From the NCBI RefSeq assembly GCF_028368935.1, contig NZ_JAQNDK010000003.1, positions 868,001 through 932,000 of the forward strand: a stretch of 64,000 nt of DNA, read 5' to 3'. The notes beneath the pieces were generated by a model. It saw only the letters and a list, made by a program, of their open reading frames with translations. It searched no databases and was not told where the DNA came from. The translations under genes and the position numbers were made by a program. Shown one piece after another: positions 14,532 through 50,370 of this stretch; within the stretch, counting starts at the first letter, position 1, and every line of letters starts with the position of its first letter. Source of the DNA: Sorangium aterium. GTDB taxonomy: Bacteria; Myxococcota_A; Polyangia; Polyangiales; Polyangiaceae.

Positions 14532-14899
14532 TTTTCCAGCAGGGAGGCGGATCGCGTAAGGAGCCCTCTGTCACCTGATGTGAGCGCATCGGTTCGCCCT
14601 TGACATTCTCGAATCGTTTTGCTTTTCCTTCTCTCGGCGCATCCGTCGCTGGCGCGTCGACCGTCCATACCGGGCAGTTGATCGGCGCGTGCTCGGCGTG
14701 CTCTCGGCTCGATGACGAGCCGATGTGACGCGACGTCGCGCAGCCGGCTCCTCCGCGAGCATCGGCGTGCCCGCTGGCTTCGCGCCCTGGTCTCCGATTT
14801 GCTTAAGCCTGGTCTCGCACTGGTTCGACCGACACCGTCTTGTTGCTCGCTGGGCCGGCACGGGGTTCCAGCGGGCCCCCAACATCCGAGGAGATTTCC

Positions 14900-15199
14900 A
14901 TGATCGCCAGGGGACTTTTCGACGAGCTTCATATTGGAGAGATCGACCCCGGCCGCTACCACATGGTAGACCGCACAAGCGGCCAAACGGTCGGGGTCAT
15001 CATGGTCCGGCATCCTGATCTCGTGGTTGTGCTCTTCTCGAGCCTCCCTACGGTTCAGGGGCAAGATCGCGTCCTAGATCTCGTGTACGAGAGTATCGGT
15101 GGACACGTGTTCACCGTCGCAGATGCCCTGAGTTTGGCGCCGAACGGAGATTACCGCGTCGTGCATTACTCCGGGCGCATGGTCGCCACGCATCCGTAG
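14900..15199 (+). CDS. Small unknown protein, copy 1
   Basis: A 99-aa soluble protein without signal peptide. The start follows CGAGGAGATTTCC, an excellent ribosome site. The sequence alternates short strands (GRYHMVDRTSGQTVGVIMVR; LVVVLFSSLPTVQ) and ends in YRVVHYSGRMVATHP, suggesting a small beta-rich fold. It is 85% or so identical by eye to copy 2 at 15737, differing mainly in residues 64-80, where copy 2 has a two-residue-longer loop. The function is unknown. Both copies stay open, and the differences do not disrupt the frame, which suggests both are used. Confidence 0.7.
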   Translation: MIARGLFDELHIGEIDPGRYHMVDRTSGQTVGVIMVRHPDLVVVLFSSLPTVQGQDRVLDLVYESIGGHVFTVADALSLAPNGDYRVVHYSGRMVATHP

Positions 15200-15350: not shown

Positions 15351-15736
15351 TTGCTCGATTCCGCGTCACTTTTCCAGTAGGGGGGCGGATCGCGTAAGGA
15401 GCCCTCTGTCACCTGATGTGAGCGCAGCGGTTCGCCTTGACATCCTCGAATCGTTTTGTTTTTCCTTTTCTCGGCGCATCCGTCACTGGCGCGCCGACCG
15501 TCCATACCGGGCGGTTGATCGGCGCGTGCTCAGCGTGCTCTCGGCTAGATGACGAGCGGGTGCGACGCGACGTCGCGCAGCCGGCTCCTCCGCGAGCATC
15601 GGAGTGCCCGCTGGCTTCGCGCCTTGGTCTCCAAATTGCTTAAGCCTGGTCTCGCACTCGTTCGACCGACACCGTCTTGTTGCTCGCTGGACCGGCACGG
15701 GGTTCCAGCGGGCCCCCAACATCCGAGGAGATTTCC

Positions 15737-16042
15737 ATGATCGCCAGAGGACTTTTCGACGAGCTTCATATCGGAGAGATCGACCCCGGCCGCTACCACA
15801 TGGTAGACCGCACAAGCGGCCAAACGGTCGGGTTCATCATGGTCCGGCATCCTGATCTCGTGGTTGTGCTCTTCTCGGGCGTCCCCACGGTTCAGGGGCA
15901 AAATCGCGTCCTGGATCTCGTGCACGAGGATCCTGCCGCTGGGAAGGGCGCGTTCACGGTCAAAGAAGCCGTGGCATTGGCGCCGAACGGAGAATATCGC
16001 GTCGTGTATTACTCCGGGCGCATGGTTGCCACGCATCCGTAG
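15737..16042 (+). CDS. Small unknown protein, copy 2
   Basis: A 101-aa paralogue of the product at 14900, with the same ribosome site and the same first ~50 residues apart from single changes (VGFIMVR against VGVIMVR). Its loop near residue 65 reads HEDPAAGKGAFTVKEA. The stop lies 4 bp before the stop of the convergent activator gene. Co-location with an FHA sigma-54 activator and a kinase may mean it belongs to that regulatory unit, but nothing in the sequence proves it. Confidence 0.72.
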   Translation: MIARGLFDELHIGEIDPGRYHMVDRTSGQTVGFIMVRHPDLVVVLFSGVPTVQGQNRVLDLVHEDPAAGKGAFTVKEAVALAPNGEYRVVYYSGRMVATHP

Positions 16043-35895: not shown

Positions 35896-36045
35896 TCAGC
35901 GACGGCGCCGAATGCCGAGGACGACCGCGGCGCCCATGCCGACGAGCACGAGCAGGGCCACGCCGACCCATGCCCAATCCCAGGGATCCGAGCTAAAGGA
36001 GACGGCCACCGCGCCGCACCCGGGAGACCACGCTCTTCCTTTCAT
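35896..36045 (-). CDS. 49-aa tail-anchored mini-protein (MYXO-CTERM-like), copy 2
   Basis: A homologue of the product at 25110: SPGCGAVAVSFSSDPWDWAW, helix VGVALLVLVGMGAAVVLG and terminal IRRRR. Between the copies the Cys, the SFSSDP phrase, the helix and the Arg cluster are kept while neighbouring DNA has diverged. Start taken at the MKGRAW methionine; a longer frame runs to 36129. Upstream (36046-36130) again shows the RRGPHLPADRR phrase of copy 1, so the whole block is duplicated. Function unknown. Confidence 0.45.
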   Translation of the reverse strand: MKGRAWSPGCGAVAVSFSSDPWDWAWVGVALLVLVGMGAAVVLGIRRRR

Positions 36046-36805
36046 CAGGCGGCGCATCCCCTCATAAACAGCCCCCTCCGGTCCGCTGGCAGGTGCGGAC
36101 CCCGCCGCGGTGCTCCTCGACACCACCACCCCGCCATCTGCTCGGGCGCCGTGTAAGCTAGCGTGAACGCGAGCTCGTCGGCGTCCAGCGCCGCGACGTG
36201 GCCGAGCTCGACCAGGTGGACGGCCACGGCCCCGAGCTCGCCGGCGCTAAGCGCCGGTGTCCAGCCACCAGCGCCCGACGTCGCCCTCGACCCGTACGGC
36301 CGCCCCGAGCCCGCCGCCGCGCCCCTTGCGGACGTGCTCCCGATCGATGCGGAGCGCCGGCAGGGACCAGAACGCCGATCCCGAGCTCGATCAGGTGGAC
36401 GTCGACGCCAGCGACGGCCCGAGCTCGGCCAGGTGGACGTCGACGCCAGCGACGGCCCGAGCTCGGCCAGGTGGACGGCGCCCGCGCCGAGCCCGCCGCC
36501 GTCCACGTCGACGCCGCGGTCGCTCCGCCCTCGACCCGCGCGTGGGGGAACCGGGGTTTGCGCACAGAGGCGAGGTCGCGCCGCTCGAAGGTGCGCGGCC
36601 GTCAGGGCGTCGTCACCGCGGCATACACTCGGCGCCGCGACGTGCCGCGCTCGCACTGAACGATTCCGCACCGCCGGTGTCGCGTAGCTCCAAGCGTAGC
36701 GGCGGGACGCGTTCGCGCGGTGGGCCGCCTGGTCCTCCGAGCGACACCCGGACCTGCGGACCACGCGGCGCACTGCAGAACCACTTGACACCTGCACAGA
36801 GAAAT
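36046..36805. other. Degenerate repetitive region upstream of the caspase/TIR operon
   Basis: Minus-strand frames read GELGAVAVHLVELGHVAALD and similar, the same recurrent phrase as at 10975, 22081 and 35640. It includes the 38-bp tandem repeat at 36393. I see no gene; the last part should hold the operon promoter. Confidence 0.4.
36393..36468. repeat. 38-bp tandem repeat, two perfect copies
   Basis: The unit AGGTGGACGTCGACGCCAGC continues with GACGGCCCGAGCTCGGCC. It occurs at 36393-36430 and 36431-36468 without mismatch, and a third copy breaks off after AGGTGGACG. Confidence 0.9.
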
Positions 36806-38695: not shown

Positions 38696-38803
38696 ATGGT
38701 AGACGGAACGGCAGACAAAGCGAACGCGCATCCTGGACGCTTGAAGGTTCCGCAGAAATTGCGGAGCGTTGCGAAGCTGAATGATGAAGGGGCGAATCGA
38801 TGA
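38696..38803 (+). CDS. Possible 35-aa leader/mini-ORF before the caspase
   Basis: ATG at 38696 opens a Lys/Arg/Asn-rich peptide (MVDGTADKANAHPGRLKVPQ, then KLRSVAKLNDEGANR) whose stop overlaps the caspase start as ATGA. There is no strong ribosome site. Overlap suggests translational coupling of the caspase to this ORF, but it may be chance. Confidence 0.35.
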   Translation: MVDGTADKANAHPGRLKVPQKLRSVAKLNDEGANR

Positions 38804-39747
38804 GGCGAGCACTTGTCGTGGGGATCAACGATTACATGGGAGCACCCCTTGCGGGCTGCGTTAATGACGCGAGTGCAGTTGCGACGATACTAGAAACGCA
38901 CGGAGACGGGTCCCCCAACTTCGGGGTCAGACTCATCACTGCCCCAAGCTCTTCAATCTCCAGGGGCGAGCTGCGAGAGGCCATCGATAAACTTTTTGCG
39001 GATGTCTGTGATATTGCCCTCTTCTATTTTTCAGGTCACGGGCTGATTAAGAGCACTGGCGGGTATATTATCACTCCGGATTACAAGAAGTACGATGAAG
39101 GTATCTCTATGGACGAGATTCTCGTGCTCGCTAACAATTCGCGCGCAAGAGATCGAGTCATCCTTCTTGACTGCTGCCATTCTGGTGCGTTCGGTTCGCC
39201 CGCCTTATCGGGGTCCAATACTGCTCAACTTGCCGAAGGGCTCTCGGTGATGACGGCAAGCCGATCTTCGGAGTCGGCATTCGAGGTGAACGGCTCAGGT
39301 GTCTTCACGAGCCTTGTCACTGAGGCGCTGAAAGGTGGAGCAGCGGATCTGCGGGGCCACGTGACGCCAGGTGGTGTCTACTCGTACGTTGATCGGGCAC
39401 TCGGACCATGGGATCAGCGACCAATCTTCAAGACAAACGTCACTCGTTTCACATCGCTGCGACAGGTCAGCCCGCCCATCCCACTGGCTACACTTCGAAA
39501 GCTCTGCGTGTACTTCCCACACGCATCGGACGAGTACCGGCTCGATCCATCGCACGAGTCCACGTCGCCGAGCGCGGATCCAGCAAACGTCCAAACAATG
39601 AAGGATCTGCAAAAATTCGTGAGTGTCGGGCTCGTTGTGCCCGTCGCTGAAGAACACATGTACTTCGCAGCCATGAACTCCAGATCGTGTCGTCTTACCG
39701 CCCTCGGGTACCACTATTGGCGGCTCGCTCACGAGAAGAAAATCTAA
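38800..39747 (+). CDS. Caspase-like (peptidase C14) protease
   Basis: A 315-aa protein. N-terminal caspase fold (ALVVGINDYMGAPLAGCVND), catalytic His in FYFSGHG (His 80) and catalytic Cys in LLDCCHSG (Cys 126), so the dyad is complete. After ~residue 240 a second domain (LRKLCVYFPHASDEY ... SCRLTALGYHYWRLA) looks like a winged-helix or effector-associated region. GAAGGGG precedes the ATG. It is followed after 21 bp by a TIR-like gene. Caspase-like proteases paired with TIR enzymes act as abortive-infection effectors in Thoeris variants (family knowledge), so activation by a TIR-made signal nucleotide is the leading hypothesis. Confidence 0.9.
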   Translation: MRRALVVGINDYMGAPLAGCVNDASAVATILETHGDGSPNFGVRLITAPSSSISRGELREAIDKLFADVCDIALFYFSGHGLIKSTGGYIITPDYKKYDEGISMDEILVLANNSRARDRVILLDCCHSGAFGSPALSGSNTAQLAEGLSVMTASRSSESAFEVNGSGVFTSLVTEALKGGAADLRGHVTPGGVYSYVDRALGPWDQRPIFKTNVTRFTSLRQVSPPIPLATLRKLCVYFPHASDEYRLDPSHESTSPSADPANVQTMKDLQKFVSVGLVVPVAEEHMYFAAMNSRSCRLTALGYHYWRLAHEKKI

Positions 39748-39768
39748 GTAATAAGCAAAGGGATCGCG

Positions 39769-40173
39769 ATGCCCTACCTCAAGACATACGATCTCTTCAT
39801 AAGTCATGCATGGGATTACAATGATGAGTACTACCGACTCGTGGCGATGCTCGATGGTGCGCCCAATTTCAAATGGCGGAATTACTCTGTTCCCGAGCAT
39901 GATCCGCTTGCAGGCGGCCGGCGGCTTGCCCAACAACTAGATGGCCAGATTCGTCCCGTAAATGCGGTCCTCATTTTAGCCGGCATGTACGTCAACCACA
40001 GAGGCTGGATTCAGAAGGAGATCGAACTGGCGCAGAGCTACAATAAGCCACTCATCGGTATCAGGCCGTGGGGGAACTACAATGTTCCACAGGTTGTTGC
40101 CATGACAGCGGAGACTATTGTCGGTTGGAAGACTGACAGTATCGTAGGCGCTGTGCGAGCCCATGCAATCTGA
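39769..40173 (+). CDS. TIR-like (ThsB / MTH538 type) protein
   Basis: A 134-aa single-domain protein. It opens with YDLFISHAWDYNDEYYRLV, the beta-A strand and loop of ThsB-like TIR proteins. NAVLILAGMYVNHRGWIQKE contains the strand and the glutamate (WIQKEIELA) equivalent to the catalytic Glu of NADase TIRs, and IGIRPWGNYNVPQVV is the PWG motif of this subfamily. AAGGGA is the ribosome site. It is the last gene of the operon with the caspase. In Thoeris, such proteins sense phage and make a cyclic-ADP-ribose-like signal; here the partner is a caspase rather than ThsA. Confidence 0.85.
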   Translation: MPYLKTYDLFISHAWDYNDEYYRLVAMLDGAPNFKWRNYSVPEHDPLAGGRRLAQQLDGQIRPVNAVLILAGMYVNHRGWIQKEIELAQSYNKPLIGIRPWGNYNVPQVVAMTAETIVGWKTDSIVGAVRAHAI

Positions 40174-41400: not shown

Positions 41401-41793
41401 ATGGCCACAAAAAAAAGGGTTTTCATCAGTTTTGACTTCGATCATGACGAAGGCGCAAAGATCATGCTCGCCGGACAAGCAAAACTACCTGATAGCCCGT
41501 TCGACTTTATAGATGCTTCAATTAAGGAGCATCTGACCGGCGACTGGAAGGAAAAGGTCCGGCGTCGAATGGGGAACGTTGATGTGGTTGTTGTGCTTTG
41601 TGGCGAACATACCCATACAGCGAGTGGTGTAGCTGCGGAACTGACGATTGCTCAGGAGAAGAATAAAGAATATTTCCACCTCGCTGCTTACTCTGACAAG
41701 ACTTGCACAAAGCCTACATCAGCGACAGCATCAGATAAGGTCTATAGGTGGACGTGGGACAATCTGAAGACACTTATTGGCGGAGGGAGATGA
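41401..41793 (+). CDS. Second TIR-like (MTH538 type) protein
   Basis: A 130-aa protein: KKRVFISFDFDHDEGAKIML at the start, DSPFDFIDASIKEHLTGDWK in the middle, VDVVVVLCGEHTHTASGVAA with a Glu in AAELTIAQEKNK, then YRWTWDNLKTLIGG. This is the DUF1863/MTH538 TIR-like fold, of a different subtype from the product at 39769 (FDFID motif, no PWG). GGAG lies 7 bases before the ATG. Its composition is markedly AT-richer than its surroundings. No effector is adjacent on the same strand; it could share the caspase system or be a solo sensor. Confidence 0.82.
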   Translation: MATKKRVFISFDFDHDEGAKIMLAGQAKLPDSPFDFIDASIKEHLTGDWKEKVRRRMGNVDVVVVLCGEHTHTASGVAAELTIAQEKNKEYFHLAAYSDKTCTKPTSATASDKVYRWTWDNLKTLIGGGR

Positions 41794-41842: not shown

Positions 41843-43762
41843 TCAGGGCGGAGTTGTCTCTGTAACGGGCGGCCTCTTCCGCATGCACTCGTCGAGGCCG
41901 GTCTGGAGGCTCGCTACGAAGGAGCCCGGGAGCGTCGGGTCGCCCATCACGTTCACGAAGAGGCGATCCTGCGCGATGCCGCCGCCCGGCCCGAAGCTCA
42001 TCCACACGAACATCGCGCGTCCCTTGATGTTCTCGAAGGGCACGCCCCCGCCGAGCCCGCCGCGCCAGCTGCGCGAGTCATGGCTGTTGTTGCGGTTGTC
42101 GCCCATCACCCACGCTTCGTCCGCGGCCGCTTTGAAGGGGCCCTGGAGATCGCCGCAGACGCCGCCCCGGCAGGTGGAGCCCAGCGTGCAGTCATTGCTC
42201 TCCACGCACATCATCCCGTCGGGGTTCTTTTCGTAGAGCGTGAAGTACGACTTGTCCCCGAGGTACTCGACGAACAGCTCCGCTTGCCGGCCCTCGTAGT
42301 GGTAGGGGCCGACGTGACAGTGGGGGACGAGCCAGCCGTTGATGATGGGGCGGCCGTTGATCGCCTCCAGCGTGTCGCCAGGGATGGCGATCGTCCGCTT
42401 GATGAAGTCCTGCTCCTTGTTCTCGGGGAACTTGAACACCATCACGTCGCCGCGCGACGGCGGCAGGCGAGGGAAGAGGCGCTGGCCGGTCCAGGGGATG
42501 AGCGGGCCGTAGGTGAACTTGTTGACGAAGATGTGGTCGCCGACCATGAGGGTCGGGATCATCGAGGCGCTCGGGATCTTGAATGCTTCGACGACGAAGG
42601 CGCGCAGGATGAGCGGCACGGCGATGGCCAACAACAGATTGCCGCGCAGCAGGCGTCGGAGCGGCTCATGGGTGCGCACAGGGTCGACTTGGACCCCGAT
42701 CCGCGCAGCGCGTGCCAGGGGCAAATCGTTGCCCAGAATGCTTATGACGAGAAACAGGATGGAGTACACGTTGATCACTACAGGGAGAGTCTGCTCAGCA
42801 ACAAAAACCTCAATCGGCGTAGCGGCATGAATTTGACCATGCGCCGGGGTGAGCGACCAGACGGTGAGCAGAGCGAAGCCGAAGGGAACGGAGACGTACC
42901 AGAAGAGGTAAAAGAGCATCCGACGCAGCCCCCAGGTCATCCGGGCGCGGAACCTTCCCGTATCACGCACGGCCGCGTGCTGTCGGAGAGCTCGCTCGAT
43001 CGCGCGCAGTCGATGGTGAGGACTCGGCGTTCTGGCCACAATCGCGCGTGCCGCGCCGGCCTGTCCGAATTGAACGGCGGCGACGCGTTCATCGATGTCG
43101 GGGAGGAATTCGAACGTGTCTTGCAGCGACCGCCACTGGGCGTTCCAATCACGCCAATCCTCATCGACGCGTAGAGGCGGCGCTACAACAAGCACGCGTC
43201 CAAGCCCTGGCTCGCTCGCGACGCGCTTCATCTCCCAGCGCAATGCTGGCCTGTCATCCGGCAATATCACGACGAGCGCTGAACGTCGTGCCGCATCCTT
43301 GACGCGCTTTTTCCAATCCGATCCGGCAAAAAGGCGCGATGCTCCCTCCGGCTGGGTTTTCTCCACCGGATTTCCCAGCGCGACAACTGGACCGAAGCGC
43401 CGAAGCATGTTGGCCAGCGCCTCTTCGAACGTGAGCGCGGGCCAGAGCCGGACCTGCTCCCACGGAAAGGAGCAGAGCAGTTGAAGCCAGAAGAACGGCC
43501 GTTTGATCGAAAGCTCGTCACGTCCGAAGGAGCGCAGGAAGAGGATCGGGGGCCGGGGATCCCGCGTGAGCTCCTCCTCGGCAGACAGTCTTCTGAGCCG
43601 CCGCGTGTAAACGAAGCCGGCGCTCGCGTACCAGATGAAGGGGAGCGCCAGAAGGTGAGCCGCGGGTAACTCAGTGAACGCTGTGAGCAGTACCGCAAAC
43701 TGCACCCCTATTACCAAGACAATCTGAAGCGCCGCACCAGCGAGCTTGTGTTGGACGCCCAT
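41843..43762 (-). CDS. Type I signal peptidase fused to a membrane 'FLRSF' domain
   Basis: A 639-aa protein. Two N-terminal transmembrane helices, then a cytoplasmic domain from ~residue 70 with ILFLRSFGRDELSIKR, PVVALGNPVEK and ALVVILPDDRPALRWEM. This is a TIR-like/Rossmannoid pattern known from membrane proteins of unknown role. Two more helices lead into a complete signal peptidase I: Ser in PSASMIPTL near 400, Lys in FIKRTIAIPGD near 455, and MGDNRNNSHDSR. A small Cys-rich insert (CVESNDCTLGSTCRGGVCG) lies between. Start at 43762; the frame extends to 44206, but that part has no coding character. The fusion may process exported substrates in response to a cytoplasmic signal. Confidence 0.85.
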   Translation of the reverse strand: MGVQHKLAGAALQIVLVIGVQFAVLLTAFTELPAAHLLALPFIWYASAGFVYTRRLRRLSAEEELTRDPRPPILFLRSFGRDELSIKRPFFWLQLLCSFPWEQVRLWPALTFEEALANMLRRFGPVVALGNPVEKTQPEGASRLFAGSDWKKRVKDAARRSALVVILPDDRPALRWEMKRVASEPGLGRVLVVAPPLRVDEDWRDWNAQWRSLQDTFEFLPDIDERVAAVQFGQAGAARAIVARTPSPHHRLRAIERALRQHAAVRDTGRFRARMTWGLRRMLFYLFWYVSVPFGFALLTVWSLTPAHGQIHAATPIEVFVAEQTLPVVINVYSILFLVISILGNDLPLARAARIGVQVDPVRTHEPLRRLLRGNLLLAIAVPLILRAFVVEAFKIPSASMIPTLMVGDHIFVNKFTYGPLIPWTGQRLFPRLPPSRGDVMVFKFPENKEQDFIKRTIAIPGDTLEAINGRPIINGWLVPHCHVGPYHYEGRQAELFVEYLGDKSYFTLYEKNPDGMMCVESNDCTLGSTCRGGVCGDLQGPFKAAADEAWVMGDNRNNSHDSRSWRGGLGGGVPFENIKGRAMFVWMSFGPGGGIAQDRLFVNVMGDPTLPGSFVASLQTGLDECMRKRPPVTETTPP

Positions 43763-44068: not shown

Positions 44069-44455
44069 TGTATAGGGTAGAGACAGTCGACGTCGTGCTC
44101 CGCAGCCGCCGGATCGCGTCGCACCCTCGCTTTCGAGCGCGCGGCAAACACTCGATCGTGCGTGAGCAGATGCCGAGCGCCCAGCGGGCGCATGTGGAGT
44201 GGACACCCTCGTGCCATGAGGCGCGAGCTAAGAAGACCGGTCCGCCAGCCGGGCAACTCTGCGAGGTGATCCTGGTCGAGCGCGGCCTCACCCTGAGCAG
44301 GGCTTCCGGTCCTGCCTGGGCCTGCTGCCTCTCGGCAAGCGCTACGGCCAGGAGCGGCTGGAGGCTGCCTGCGTGCGCGCCGGGCCTGTCCACGATCGCT
44401 CATATAGGCACGTCGAGTCGAACCTGAAGAACGGGCCCGATCACGTGCACTTATC
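44069..44455 (+). pseudogene. istA: IS21 IstA transposase, C-terminal remnant
   Basis: A frame from 44069 reads YRVETVDVVLRSRRIASHPR, REQMPSAQRAHVEWTPS and KKTGPPAGQLCEVILVERG, and after a frameshift near 44285 continues HPEQGFRSCLGLLPLGKRYG and SYRHVESNLKNGPDHV. These are typical IstA C-terminal phrases. The catalytic core upstream is missing. Confidence 0.72.
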
Positions 44456-44501: not shown

Positions 44502-46415
44502 CTACGTCGCGTAATATGGTGACCAGTCGTCATCCGCAATACGACACGGCAGCTCTGACCCGTCGGGAAGCCTCGCAAGCTGGACAGGTTGAGTCAGTGT
44601 AAAATCGACATAACCAGTTAGCGGATGAACCAACAGAAGACTCTGCAACCCCTCTGTAAAATCGTCAATGCTGGAGATGCGCTGCTTTTGGTCAAAAAGC
44701 AAGCACCTCTCCGTAAAATCCAGCCACGGGATACGCGAGCGCCGCGCAACCACGTCATTCTCAGGTGCCATATAGATCCTTGGGTTCTTGAGCAGTCCGA
44801 TCTTGTTGGGGCCGCGACCGTCGCGCTTTTCAGGAATGACGTACTCGGCAACCTCGCCGGTGAGCGATGCGTTGAGCAGACGAGTCAGCATCAATCCGAG
44901 TGGGTAGATGTCGGTTGCCGCGGACACCGGTTGGACCGCCACCTGTTCAGGAGCTGCCCAACCAGGACTGAGTGCAGGAGACAACTCACCGATTGAAAGT
45001 GACAGCATATCGATAAGAACCGGACCACACTCAGTTAACAATATATTATGGGGTTTGATGTCGCCATGTATCCGCCCGGAACTATGGATTCCCCGGAGTT
45101 GGTCGGCGATTCGCAAGACGATCTCGGCAAGCGCCCGGCGCGACGCAGAAAAGACGATACTATAGCGCACGCGCTCGTCGTAGCGGGTCGCGGATAGGGC
45201 CCGCGAAAGAGCGTGCGGGTATTCGGCGAGCACACCTCGGAAGATATCTTCCGACAAGTCGGGCGAACGGTGGCGTGTGATTACGAAACGACACTCGGAA
45301 AATCCATGCATTGACTCCTCAATAAATGTTCGCCAGCTTTGGGGTGCCCCGCGGTGCTTTGCTCCGCCGGGGCGCCAGCCCGCAACATAGGTCTCATCGT
45401 TGTCGAGGGACAAGGCAATGAATCGGTTTTCGCCCCCGATGGATTGCACCCGCTCGTCGGGGCCGAAGCGTGAGACCAAGATTGAGGCCTGTGTGGTCTG
45501 CTCAGTGCTTCTATTGCGGAAATCTCGAACTTCGTTTTGTTGATAGCCGGAGGGGAGCGGAATTGTGAGGGCCAGAAGCGAAGGCGCGAAGAGCGTCGAA
45601 AGACTCTTATAGGACACGTAGCATGAGGGCATTGCCCCCGAATCGACAGGAATTTTCCAGATTCCTTTGTTCCGCCAGATTCGCTCTCCTTCTTCTACGA
45701 GCACTCTGCTGATCCCGTCTAGCGGAGCAGCCGTCTTTTCCCGCTCAAGAAGCTTCGCGATCCTCGAGAGCATACTGTCCAGCGATTGACTTCGTTTGAC
45801 TCCAAGGAGGAGCGGCAGCCCGTCCGGCCCCTTACCGATCACGACGCGAGCATTGGCGCGCCTTACAAGGTCATATCGAGGCTGGACAAGCACCAGCGCA
45901 TCATGCCCCAGGGCAGCGGGCTCGGGAATTTCGATTCTTTGCCGATCGAAGTTGGCGAGAGCTTCCGTTACCAGGACGGCGAGCGATTCGGTAGTTCTAA
46001 AGAACTGGCGCACGCACTCCTGTCCTATCCGCGTTTTGAATGCGGCGAGTTTTTCCGCAAGGGGGGCTGGATCGATATAGGGAGGCGGCCAGGGATGCAT
46101 CGGCTCGATAAAGAAGGCGAGCACGGGGATATTCCGCTTGCGGGCTTCGTCATACTCGGCCTCGACGAAGCTTCGTTCCTCACCGGGGGGTACGGTGCCG
46201 TAGCGGTGGGCCAGCACGAGGATGAGCAGATCTGAGGAGGAAACTCTCTCGATGGAGACCGCGAGCGCGGTGCGCTCGTCAGCCGACCAGTAGATCATAT
46301 CCTCGCCGTGGTTCTGCAGCCGCCGGATGGCAGTGTGGACCGTCTCCCGATAATCGATCAGATCGTCGAAAGTCGAAGAAATGAATATATTCAATGGATT
46401 ATTTACTCGTCCCAT
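44502..46415 (-). CDS. DUF4062 - protein kinase-like fusion
   Basis: A 637-aa protein. Residues ~8-160 are DUF4062 (NIFISSTFDDLIDYRETVHT, SSDLLILVLAHRYGTVP, FVEAEYDEARKRNIPVLAFF), a TIR-superfamily domain usually placed in front of STAND NTPases. A middle linker (residues ~170-380) is unassigned. The C-terminal ~250 residues are kinase-like: HGDIKPHNILL near 450, then LIDMLSLS where DFG should be, and GWAAPEQV. The metal-binding DFG is replaced by DML and no clear glycine loop is visible, so it may be a pseudokinase or an atypical kinase. It is single, on the minus strand, and AT-richer than the chromosome. Likely part of the conflict region. Confidence 0.83.
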   Translation of the reverse strand: MGRVNNPLNIFISSTFDDLIDYRETVHTAIRRLQNHGEDMIYWSADERTALAVSIERVSSSDLLILVLAHRYGTVPPGEERSFVEAEYDEARKRNIPVLAFFIEPMHPWPPPYIDPAPLAEKLAAFKTRIGQECVRQFFRTTESLAVLVTEALANFDRQRIEIPEPAALGHDALVLVQPRYDLVRRANARVVIGKGPDGLPLLLGVKRSQSLDSMLSRIAKLLEREKTAAPLDGISRVLVEEGERIWRNKGIWKIPVDSGAMPSCYVSYKSLSTLFAPSLLALTIPLPSGYQQNEVRDFRNRSTEQTTQASILVSRFGPDERVQSIGGENRFIALSLDNDETYVAGWRPGGAKHRGAPQSWRTFIEESMHGFSECRFVITRHRSPDLSEDIFRGVLAEYPHALSRALSATRYDERVRYSIVFSASRRALAEIVLRIADQLRGIHSSGRIHGDIKPHNILLTECGPVLIDMLSLSIGELSPALSPGWAAPEQVAVQPVSAATDIYPLGLMLTRLLNASLTGEVAEYVIPEKRDGRGPNKIGLLKNPRIYMAPENDVVARRSRIPWLDFTERCLLFDQKQRISSIDDFTEGLQSLLLVHPLTGYVDFTLTQPVQLARLPDGSELPCRIADDDWSPYYAT

Positions 46416-49413: not shown

Positions 49414-49587
49414 GGACCACTTGCCAAACCAGCCACCCAACGAAATGGCGTTTTCGTCGGGTGGGCCAGCGGCGAGCGCGGACCGAAGCACCCGCAACGG
49501 GGAGCCGTGTTGATGCACGATGCACACGAAGATCGCGTTGCGCCCCCAGAGTCCCCGGGCTACCGTGCGCCTGCGACTGGAGGATCC

Positions 49588-50370
49588 ATGCACGGGCGCG
49601 CCAATGTTTTTGCAATTCATTCCTGGGATGACGCCGACGCCTTGCGACGTATGGAGGGGCTGCTACGCGTCGCCGACCCTAGCCTCGCCCACTACTCCGT
49701 GCTTCCCGAGCGGGCCCTCCAGGGGACGTCCGAGGAGGTAGAGCGGAACATCACCCACCGGATCGCCGTCGCGACGGCAGTCGTGGTGATGAACACGCCC
49801 GGGCTCCACCAACGCGAGACGGCGACATTCGAGATGGAGACGGCGGTGCGAATGGGTAAGCGCATCATCGTTGTGTAACCCTACGGGGACTTCGACTCGC
49901 CTATTCCGCAAGTACTGGACGGGCACGTCTACCGTTACGCTACCTGGCGGAGCGACGTCGTGGGCAGGGCCATCCGTGGGGAGTATCCCCAGGATGGACG
50001 GGTATTCGACCTCGCTGAGATCGCCGACCGTCGGGTGCTCATCAGTATTCTGGCGGCTGGAGTTGCTACGGTAAGCTTCGTCGTCATCGCCCGTGCGGCC
50101 AGCGCGTTTCAGGCGCTCCAGCAGGACCTCGCCGCCCGAGGCATCGATCTGCGCTGGGATGGTGAGGCCACGCGCACGGTGGTCGAGCACGCGGTCGTGG
50201 GTGCGGGCATTGGTCTGCTTCTCGGGGCGCTCAGCGGAGATGGAAGGACCGCTTTCTACGCAGCAGCGGGAGGCGCGGCGATCGGCGCCGCTACGGGCGT
50301 GCACCGCGTGTACAACGCGCGCCTGATCGGCACGACCCATCTGCGCGTCCTCACGATCGAGCCCATATAG
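49588..50370 (+). pseudogene. TIR-like / membrane protein broken by one stop codon
   Basis: ATG at 49588 follows GGAGGATCC. The first 96 codons are a ThsB-like TIR domain: HGRANVFAIHSWDDADALRR, TAVVVMNTPGLHQRETATFE, GKRIIVV. A TAA at 49876-49878 then interrupts, but the same frame continues immediately with PYGDFDSPIPQVLDGHVYRY and a membrane segment (VLISILAAGVATVSFVVIA), then a Gly/Ala-rich hydrophobic stretch (GIGLLLGALSGDGRTAFYAA), to 50370. The relative at 39769 reads IRPWG here, so Q or R is expected; CAA to TAA explains it in one change. Without it the product would be 260 aa. Confidence 0.78.

What the first reader, a model, noticed from the sequence alone, without database searches (positions are those of the whole stretch)
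41843..43762. Signal peptidase I fused to a membrane TIR-like 'FLRSF' domain
One continuous frame joins the FLRSFGRDEL cytoplasmic domain to a complete LepB with Ser and Lys catalytic residues and a Cys-rich insert. A signal peptidase placed under a sensor-like domain, and located in the conflict region, is not an arrangement I know. It could be a conditional protease, or simply an accessory peptidase for element-encoded lipoproteins.
Basis: partly seen in the sequence, partly recalled or inferred. Interest (0 to 1): 0.75.

Follow-up and report, generated by a model that had tools for sequence, protein, structure and literature searches.

The report
Signal peptidase fused to TIR-like domain
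In a defence-rich island of a myxobacterial genome, one intact gene joins a membrane-anchored, probably TIR-like cytoplasmic domain to a complete signal peptidase I; the pairing was found in no other genome searched, and its protease half has been refreshed by recombination with the cell's own housekeeping enzyme.

Summary
A 639-codon ATG-started ORF (43762..41843, minus strand) encodes two N-terminal transmembrane segments, a cytoplasmic 'FLRSF' alpha/beta domain, a second transmembrane hairpin and a complete signal peptidase I (LepB) with Ser400, Lys455 and the GDNRxNSxDSR box. The Cys-rich insert is normal for LepB in this family. The 'FLRSF' domain belongs to an unnamed membrane-associated family also found without LepB in Streptomyces and other Myxococcota; a TIR relationship is supported but weak (hhalign probability 33%). 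No other fusion was seen in 184 order, 290 class or 379 phylum genomes, or in 16 other carrier loci. The gene is a mosaic: residues 1-372 have island-type codon usage (GC3 0.70) and the LepB hairpin is very diverged (dS 1.2); the catalytic core (about 378-600) is host-like (GC3 0.94), only dS 0.12 from the cell's housekeeping lepB; the last 39 codons are again old (dS 0.77). So an older FLRSF-LepB fusion had its protease core overwritten by resident lepB, probably by gene conversion. The peptidase is probably active with housekeeping-like specificity. Whether the TIR-like domain gates it, and any defence role, are inferred only.

The parts
41843..43762 (-). Complete fusion gene, 639 aa, ATG start, stop included
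43589..43762 (-). Residues 1-58: short N-terminus and two predicted transmembrane segments (about 11-29 and 33-51), followed by positive residues RRLRR (inside)
   Evidence: hydropathy (first segment strong, second weaker); predicts two helices, at low confidence
42968..43588 (-). Residues 59-265: cytoplasmic FLRSF alpha/beta domain, TIR-like by profile; six family-invariant residues kept (R77, D82, G124, W150, W176, E177)
42695..42925 (-). Residues 280-356: LepB-type N-terminal transmembrane hairpin, 40% identical to that of the housekeeping LepB, GC3 0.69
41963..42631 (-). Residues 378-600: S26 signal peptidase I catalytic core (Ser400, Lys455, GDNRNNSHDSR), 88-96% aa identical to own housekeeping LepB by stretch, dS 0.12; apparent recombination tract
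42152..42211 (-). Cys-rich insert of the catalytic domain (MCVESNDCTLGSTCRGGVCG, residues 518-537); present in all LepB proteins of this family that were aligned, so not special to the fusion
41846..41962 (-). Residues 601-639: LepB C-terminal tail, old divergence (dS 0.77), outside the recombined tract

Best explanation
It is a membrane protein carried by a defence-rich genomic island. An N-terminal cytoplasmic domain of a membrane-associated, probably TIR-like family is fused to a complete type I signal peptidase. Predicted topology is five transmembrane segments, with the FLRSF domain in the cytoplasm and the Ser/Lys protease on the periplasmic face. The fusion is old relative to the genus (hairpin and tail strongly diverged, island codon usage), and its catalytic core was later overwritten by the cell's own lepB through recombination or gene conversion and then probably kept under constraint. 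It therefore most likely works as an enzymatically active signal peptidase of ordinary specificity whose amount, clustering or activation is tied to the cytoplasmic domain, for example by domain assembly or a bound nucleotide during phage infection. Shown computationally: the fusion, the residues, the mosaic. Inferred: activity, topology. Speculative: regulation by the TIR-like domain and a defence role.
For: Intact frame and catalytic residues. Domain-family residues kept. FUS-C5 core dN/dS 0.26 equals that between housekeeping orthologues C5-G100; 16 or fewer nonsynonymous of 34 core changes would have P 1.3e-4 under neutrality, though the changes on the fusion branch alone (7 of 13) give only P 0.055. 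Mosaic: dS 1.19 hairpin, 0.12 core, 0.77 tail, against 0.08, 0.14, 0.32 for C5-G100; Fisher p 7e-12 and 4e-5; GC3 step with best change points at codons 370 and 632; core tree groups fusion and C5 at 100%, while in the flank tree the fusion has a branch of 1.16. Island context. Topology from hydropathy and flanking charges.
Against: Only one genome carries the fusion, so conservation of the pairing across species cannot be shown. No substrate, expression or phage data. The TIR relation is weak (33% probability) and the AlphaFold model of the N-terminus is unusable (pLDDT 39.5). Wholesale core replacement argues against a specialised protease. The gene is not in a tight operon: a 740-base gap without an obvious gene separates it from the DUF4062-kinase gene, and the TIR gene on its other side is convergent.
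Confidence: 0.5

Rival explanations
1. Accidental chimera: the FLRSF domain became attached to a spare LepB copy, and the product merely adds signal peptidase activity (gene dosage), without any regulatory link.
For: Single genome; catalytic core interchangeable with the housekeeping copy; normal LepB already has the same transmembrane hairpin, so the addition needs no new topology.
Against: The unconverted flanks imply the fusion is older than the genus-level divergence of the core yet has stayed open over 639 codons; all six invariant residues of the N-terminal domain are kept.
Confidence: 0.3
2. The TIR-like domain is the effector (for example an NADase or nucleotide-binding oligomer), and the LepB part serves mainly as membrane anchor or as a periplasmic sensor of envelope state.
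For: Other family members are membrane proteins with no LepB, so the domain works with varied membrane parts. E177 registers near the TIR catalytic Glu in the profile alignment. The neighbour DUF4062 family is a TIR-like NADase (PMC13174449).
Against: Catalytic Ser/Lys are kept and the core diverges as slowly at protein level as the housekeeping enzyme; an anchor would not need an active protease. Enzymatic activity of this domain family is unknown.
Confidence: 0.15
3. Decaying or non-expressed gene: a recent recombination left a readable but functionless mosaic.
For: Decayed transposase fragments nearby; the fusion branch alone has only marginal evidence of constraint (7 of 13 nonsynonymous, P 0.055).
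Against: No stop over 639 codons, all catalytic boxes and family-invariant residues intact, ribosome-binding site present.
Confidence: 0.05

Closest known systems
Type I signal peptidase (LepB, MEROPS S26A) of the same genome and family
   Same: Catalytic core about 90% identical, Ser/Lys dyad, conserved boxes, Cys-rich insert, N-terminal transmembrane hairpin
   Different: Fusion lacks the coil linker (about 90 aa), has a diverged hairpin, and carries an extra 265-residue membrane and FLRSF domain at the N-terminus
Unnamed membrane-associated FLRSF/YLRSF family (Streptomyces WP_331737268, annotated 'transferase'; Myxococcota loci L082, L083, L088)
   Same: Transmembrane segments followed by P-x-LYLRSF-xx-D ... 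GPVxAxGxP ... DDW ... WE motifs, six invariant residues
   Different: All other members seen lack a signal peptidase
TIR and TIR-like NADases (ThsB, DUF4062/Swarozyc)
   Same: Profile match over the helix-strand-helix stretch carrying the conserved Glu; genomic company
   Different: Sequence homology weak; first half (LRSF...GxP) does not align; NADase activity unknown
Caspase-TIR (type IV Thoeris-like) and other immune protease effectors
   Same: Works-like idea: a TIR-type domain coupled to a protease in a defence island
   Different: Protease here is a predicted periplasmic S26 peptidase in the same polypeptide; no PADLOC match for this protein

Membership tests
Type I signal peptidase (S26A, LepB) | S26 catalytic domain over the curated cut-off | tested here: met
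   PF10502 123 bits against 22.9; TIGR02227 115 against 47
Type I signal peptidase (S26A, LepB) | Ser/Lys catalytic dyad and GDNRxNSxDSR box | tested here: met
   Ser400, Lys455 and GDNRNNSHDSR aligned to solved signal peptidase I chains
Type I signal peptidase (S26A, LepB) | Membrane anchored, catalytic domain outside the cytoplasm | tested here: inconclusive
   Hydropathy and charge pattern fit; no topology experiment
Type I signal peptidase (S26A, LepB) | Cleaves signal peptides | not testable with these tools
   Needs expression
TIR domain superfamily | Significant profile similarity to TIR | tested here: inconclusive
   hhalign probability 33%, P 4.5e-4, 0 of 397 shuffled profiles reach the score; response-regulator control 0.2%, DUF4062 83%; no Pfam TIR match
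TIR domain superfamily | TIR fold | tested here: inconclusive
   Predicted alternating strands and helices but pLDDT 39.5
TIR domain superfamily | Catalytic Glu and NADase activity | not testable with these tools
   Invariant E177 lies near the right register; activity unknown
Known anti-phage defence system component | Match to a described defence protein model | tested here: not met
   No PADLOC model up to E 0.01 for this protein

The most novel reading that the evidence does not exclude
A signal peptidase turned into an immune effector: a cytoplasmic TIR-like domain senses infection (or an NAD-derived signal from neighbouring TIR proteins) and switches on or concentrates a periplasmic S26 protease that processes phage or host envelope proteins. 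It would be the first infection-gated signal peptidase known to me.
Probability: 0.15. Interest if true: 0.85.

Novelty: new variant of a known kind. Interest (0 to 1): 0.5.

Why it matters
Signal peptidase I is essential, constitutive and a drug target; a natural version tied to a cytoplasmic immune-type domain would be a new way to control protein export or to act on an infected cell from the envelope side. The mosaic also suggests how an island gene can keep a borrowed enzyme domain current by recombining with the host's own copy, which is directly testable by sequencing more strains. The FLRSF family itself, shared between Streptomyces and myxobacteria and lacking any Pfam, NCBIfam or PADLOC model that matched here, deserves a structure and a nucleotide-binding or NADase test.

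Tried and rejected
Assembly artefact: rejected, because the core differs by about 34 substitutions from the only other copy. Recent simple duplication of the whole lepB: rejected, because synonymous divergence differs 6-10-fold along the gene and GC3 steps at codon 370. Fast evolution of the hairpin by relaxed selection alone: rejected, because synonymous sites and GC3 are affected too. The topology tests were not decisive on their own (AU p 0.057 for the core with the fusion forced outside the genus, 0.26 for the flanks forced next to C5). Cys-rich insert as a special feature: rejected (in all aligned LepB). AlphaFold of the N-terminus with two sequences failed, so no fold search was run. Viral contigs and phages: no relative. 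Matches to designed TIM barrels are read as low-complexity chance. Paper searches for a signal peptidase-TIR fusion found nothing relevant.

Full report
What is there. The minus-strand ORF 43762..41843 is complete: ATG with a Shine-Dalgarno-like GAAGGTGG upstream, 639 codons, one stop. The open frame runs further upstream to a GTG at 44206, but the protein there does not look coding and the ATG at 43762 is the likely start. Pfam and NCBIfam recognise a signal peptidase I at 376-588 and nothing in the first 370 residues. Hydropathy gives predicted membrane segments near 11-29, 25-43 (weak; placed at about 33-51 by eye), 283-301, 326-344 and 376-394; charges fit a cytoplasmic FLRSF domain and a periplasmic protease (inference).

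The protease half. Ser400 (PSASM) and Lys455 (FIKR) align with solved LepB structures, and the GDNRNNSHDSR box is intact. One change next to the catalytic serine, Gly399 to Ala, separates it from the housekeeping LepBs aligned. The window's genome (13.5 Mb, 7 contigs) has one close housekeeping LepB copy at C5:1416484 with 89% identity to residues 375-639, and a more distant S26 match on C4. That LepB, like those of the 5 congeners and wider family, has its own N-terminal transmembrane hairpin, a coil linker and the Cys-rich insert. So residues 280-356 of the fusion are LepB's hairpin, the linker is missing, and the insert is ordinary.

A mosaic. Against the housekeeping copy, synonymous divergence is 1.19 in the hairpin, 0.12 in the core (378-600) and 0.77 in the last 39 codons; the orthologue pair C5-G100 gives 0.08, 0.14 and 0.32. 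The contrasts are significant (Fisher 7e-12 and 4e-5). GC at third codon positions is 0.70 for residues 1-372, like the island genes (0.49-0.76), and 0.93 for the core, like the host; the best change points are codons 370 and 632. In the core tree the fusion and the own LepB are sisters (100% support, branch 0.03); in the flank tree the fusion sits on a branch of 1.16, although topology tests alone are not decisive. The simplest history is an older FLRSF-LepB fusion whose catalytic core was overwritten by resident lepB, by gene conversion or equivalent recombination. Pairwise dN/dS in the core is 0.26, the same as between housekeeping orthologues; restricted to the fusion branch the evidence of constraint is marginal (P 0.055).

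The N-terminal domain. It has no Pfam, NCBIfam or PADLOC model. Relatives were found in Myxococcota and on Streptomyces and Embleya plasmids. Ten sequences share P-x-LYLRSF-xx-D, GPVxAxGxP, DDW and WE motifs, with R77, D82, G124, W150, W176 and E177 (fusion numbering) invariant. A profile of these against 33 TIR domains scores 33% probability (P 4.5e-4), with the conserved Glu near the TIR catalytic position. None of 397 shuffled profiles reaches the score, a response-regulator control gives 0.2% and the neighbouring DUF4062 domain 83%. I read it as probably TIR-like, unproven. The AlphaFold model is too poor to use.

How rare. All 108 family genomes were searched with the full protein, and the order (184), class (290) and phylum (379, twice) with the N-terminal domain or its profile: no second fusion. 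Of 17 loci carrying the domain that were examined only this one also holds LepB. The big species collection was scanned only with two short peptide patterns, so a fusion elsewhere is not excluded.

Surroundings. GC falls to 0.56-0.65 over about 36-48 kb. The island holds a caspase-like gene followed 21 bases later by a ThsB-type TIR gene, two more TIR genes, a DUF4062-kinase gene and transposase remnants. DUF4062 was recently shown to be a TIR-like NADase family acting in anti-phage defence (PMC13174449, a preprint). DUF4062 was not found in the five congeners searched. The fusion is not in a tight operon: 740 bases separate it from the kinase gene and the TIR gene on the other side is convergent.

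Mechanism. Most likely an active signal peptidase of housekeeping-like specificity, with the cytoplasmic domain controlling amount, clustering or activation. The interchangeable core argues against detailed allostery; the unconverted hairpin could still couple the halves. A chimera without regulatory meaning is the main rival. No experiment bears on either yet.

Noticed in passing
38800-40173 (+): Caspase-like gene (SGHG and DCCHSG motifs intact) followed 21 bases later by a ThsB-type TIR gene: the arrangement resembles type IV Thoeris (caspase-like effector with TIR).
   Followed up: partly
44502-46415 (-): DUF4062 (TIR-like NADase family, Swarozyc) fused to a Ser/Thr protein kinase domain; DUF4062 was not found in the five congeners searched.
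   Followed up: partly
41401-41793 (+) and 49507-49878 (+): Two further small ThsB-like TIR genes in the same island, the first convergent with the fusion gene (49 bases between stops).
   Followed up: partly
14840-15199 and 15677-16042 (+): Two nearly identical small ORFs in tandem (LLLAGPARGSSGPPTSEEISMIARG...), apparently a recent duplication.
   Followed up: no
36045-36660: Repetitive stretch whose ORFs carry repeats such as 'LGPSLASTSTWPSSG' on one strand and 'VDVDASDGPSSARW' on the other.
   Followed up: no
G036:C303, G033:C177, G032:C70 (other family genomes): Some relatives carry two adjacent lepB genes in tandem.
   Followed up: no
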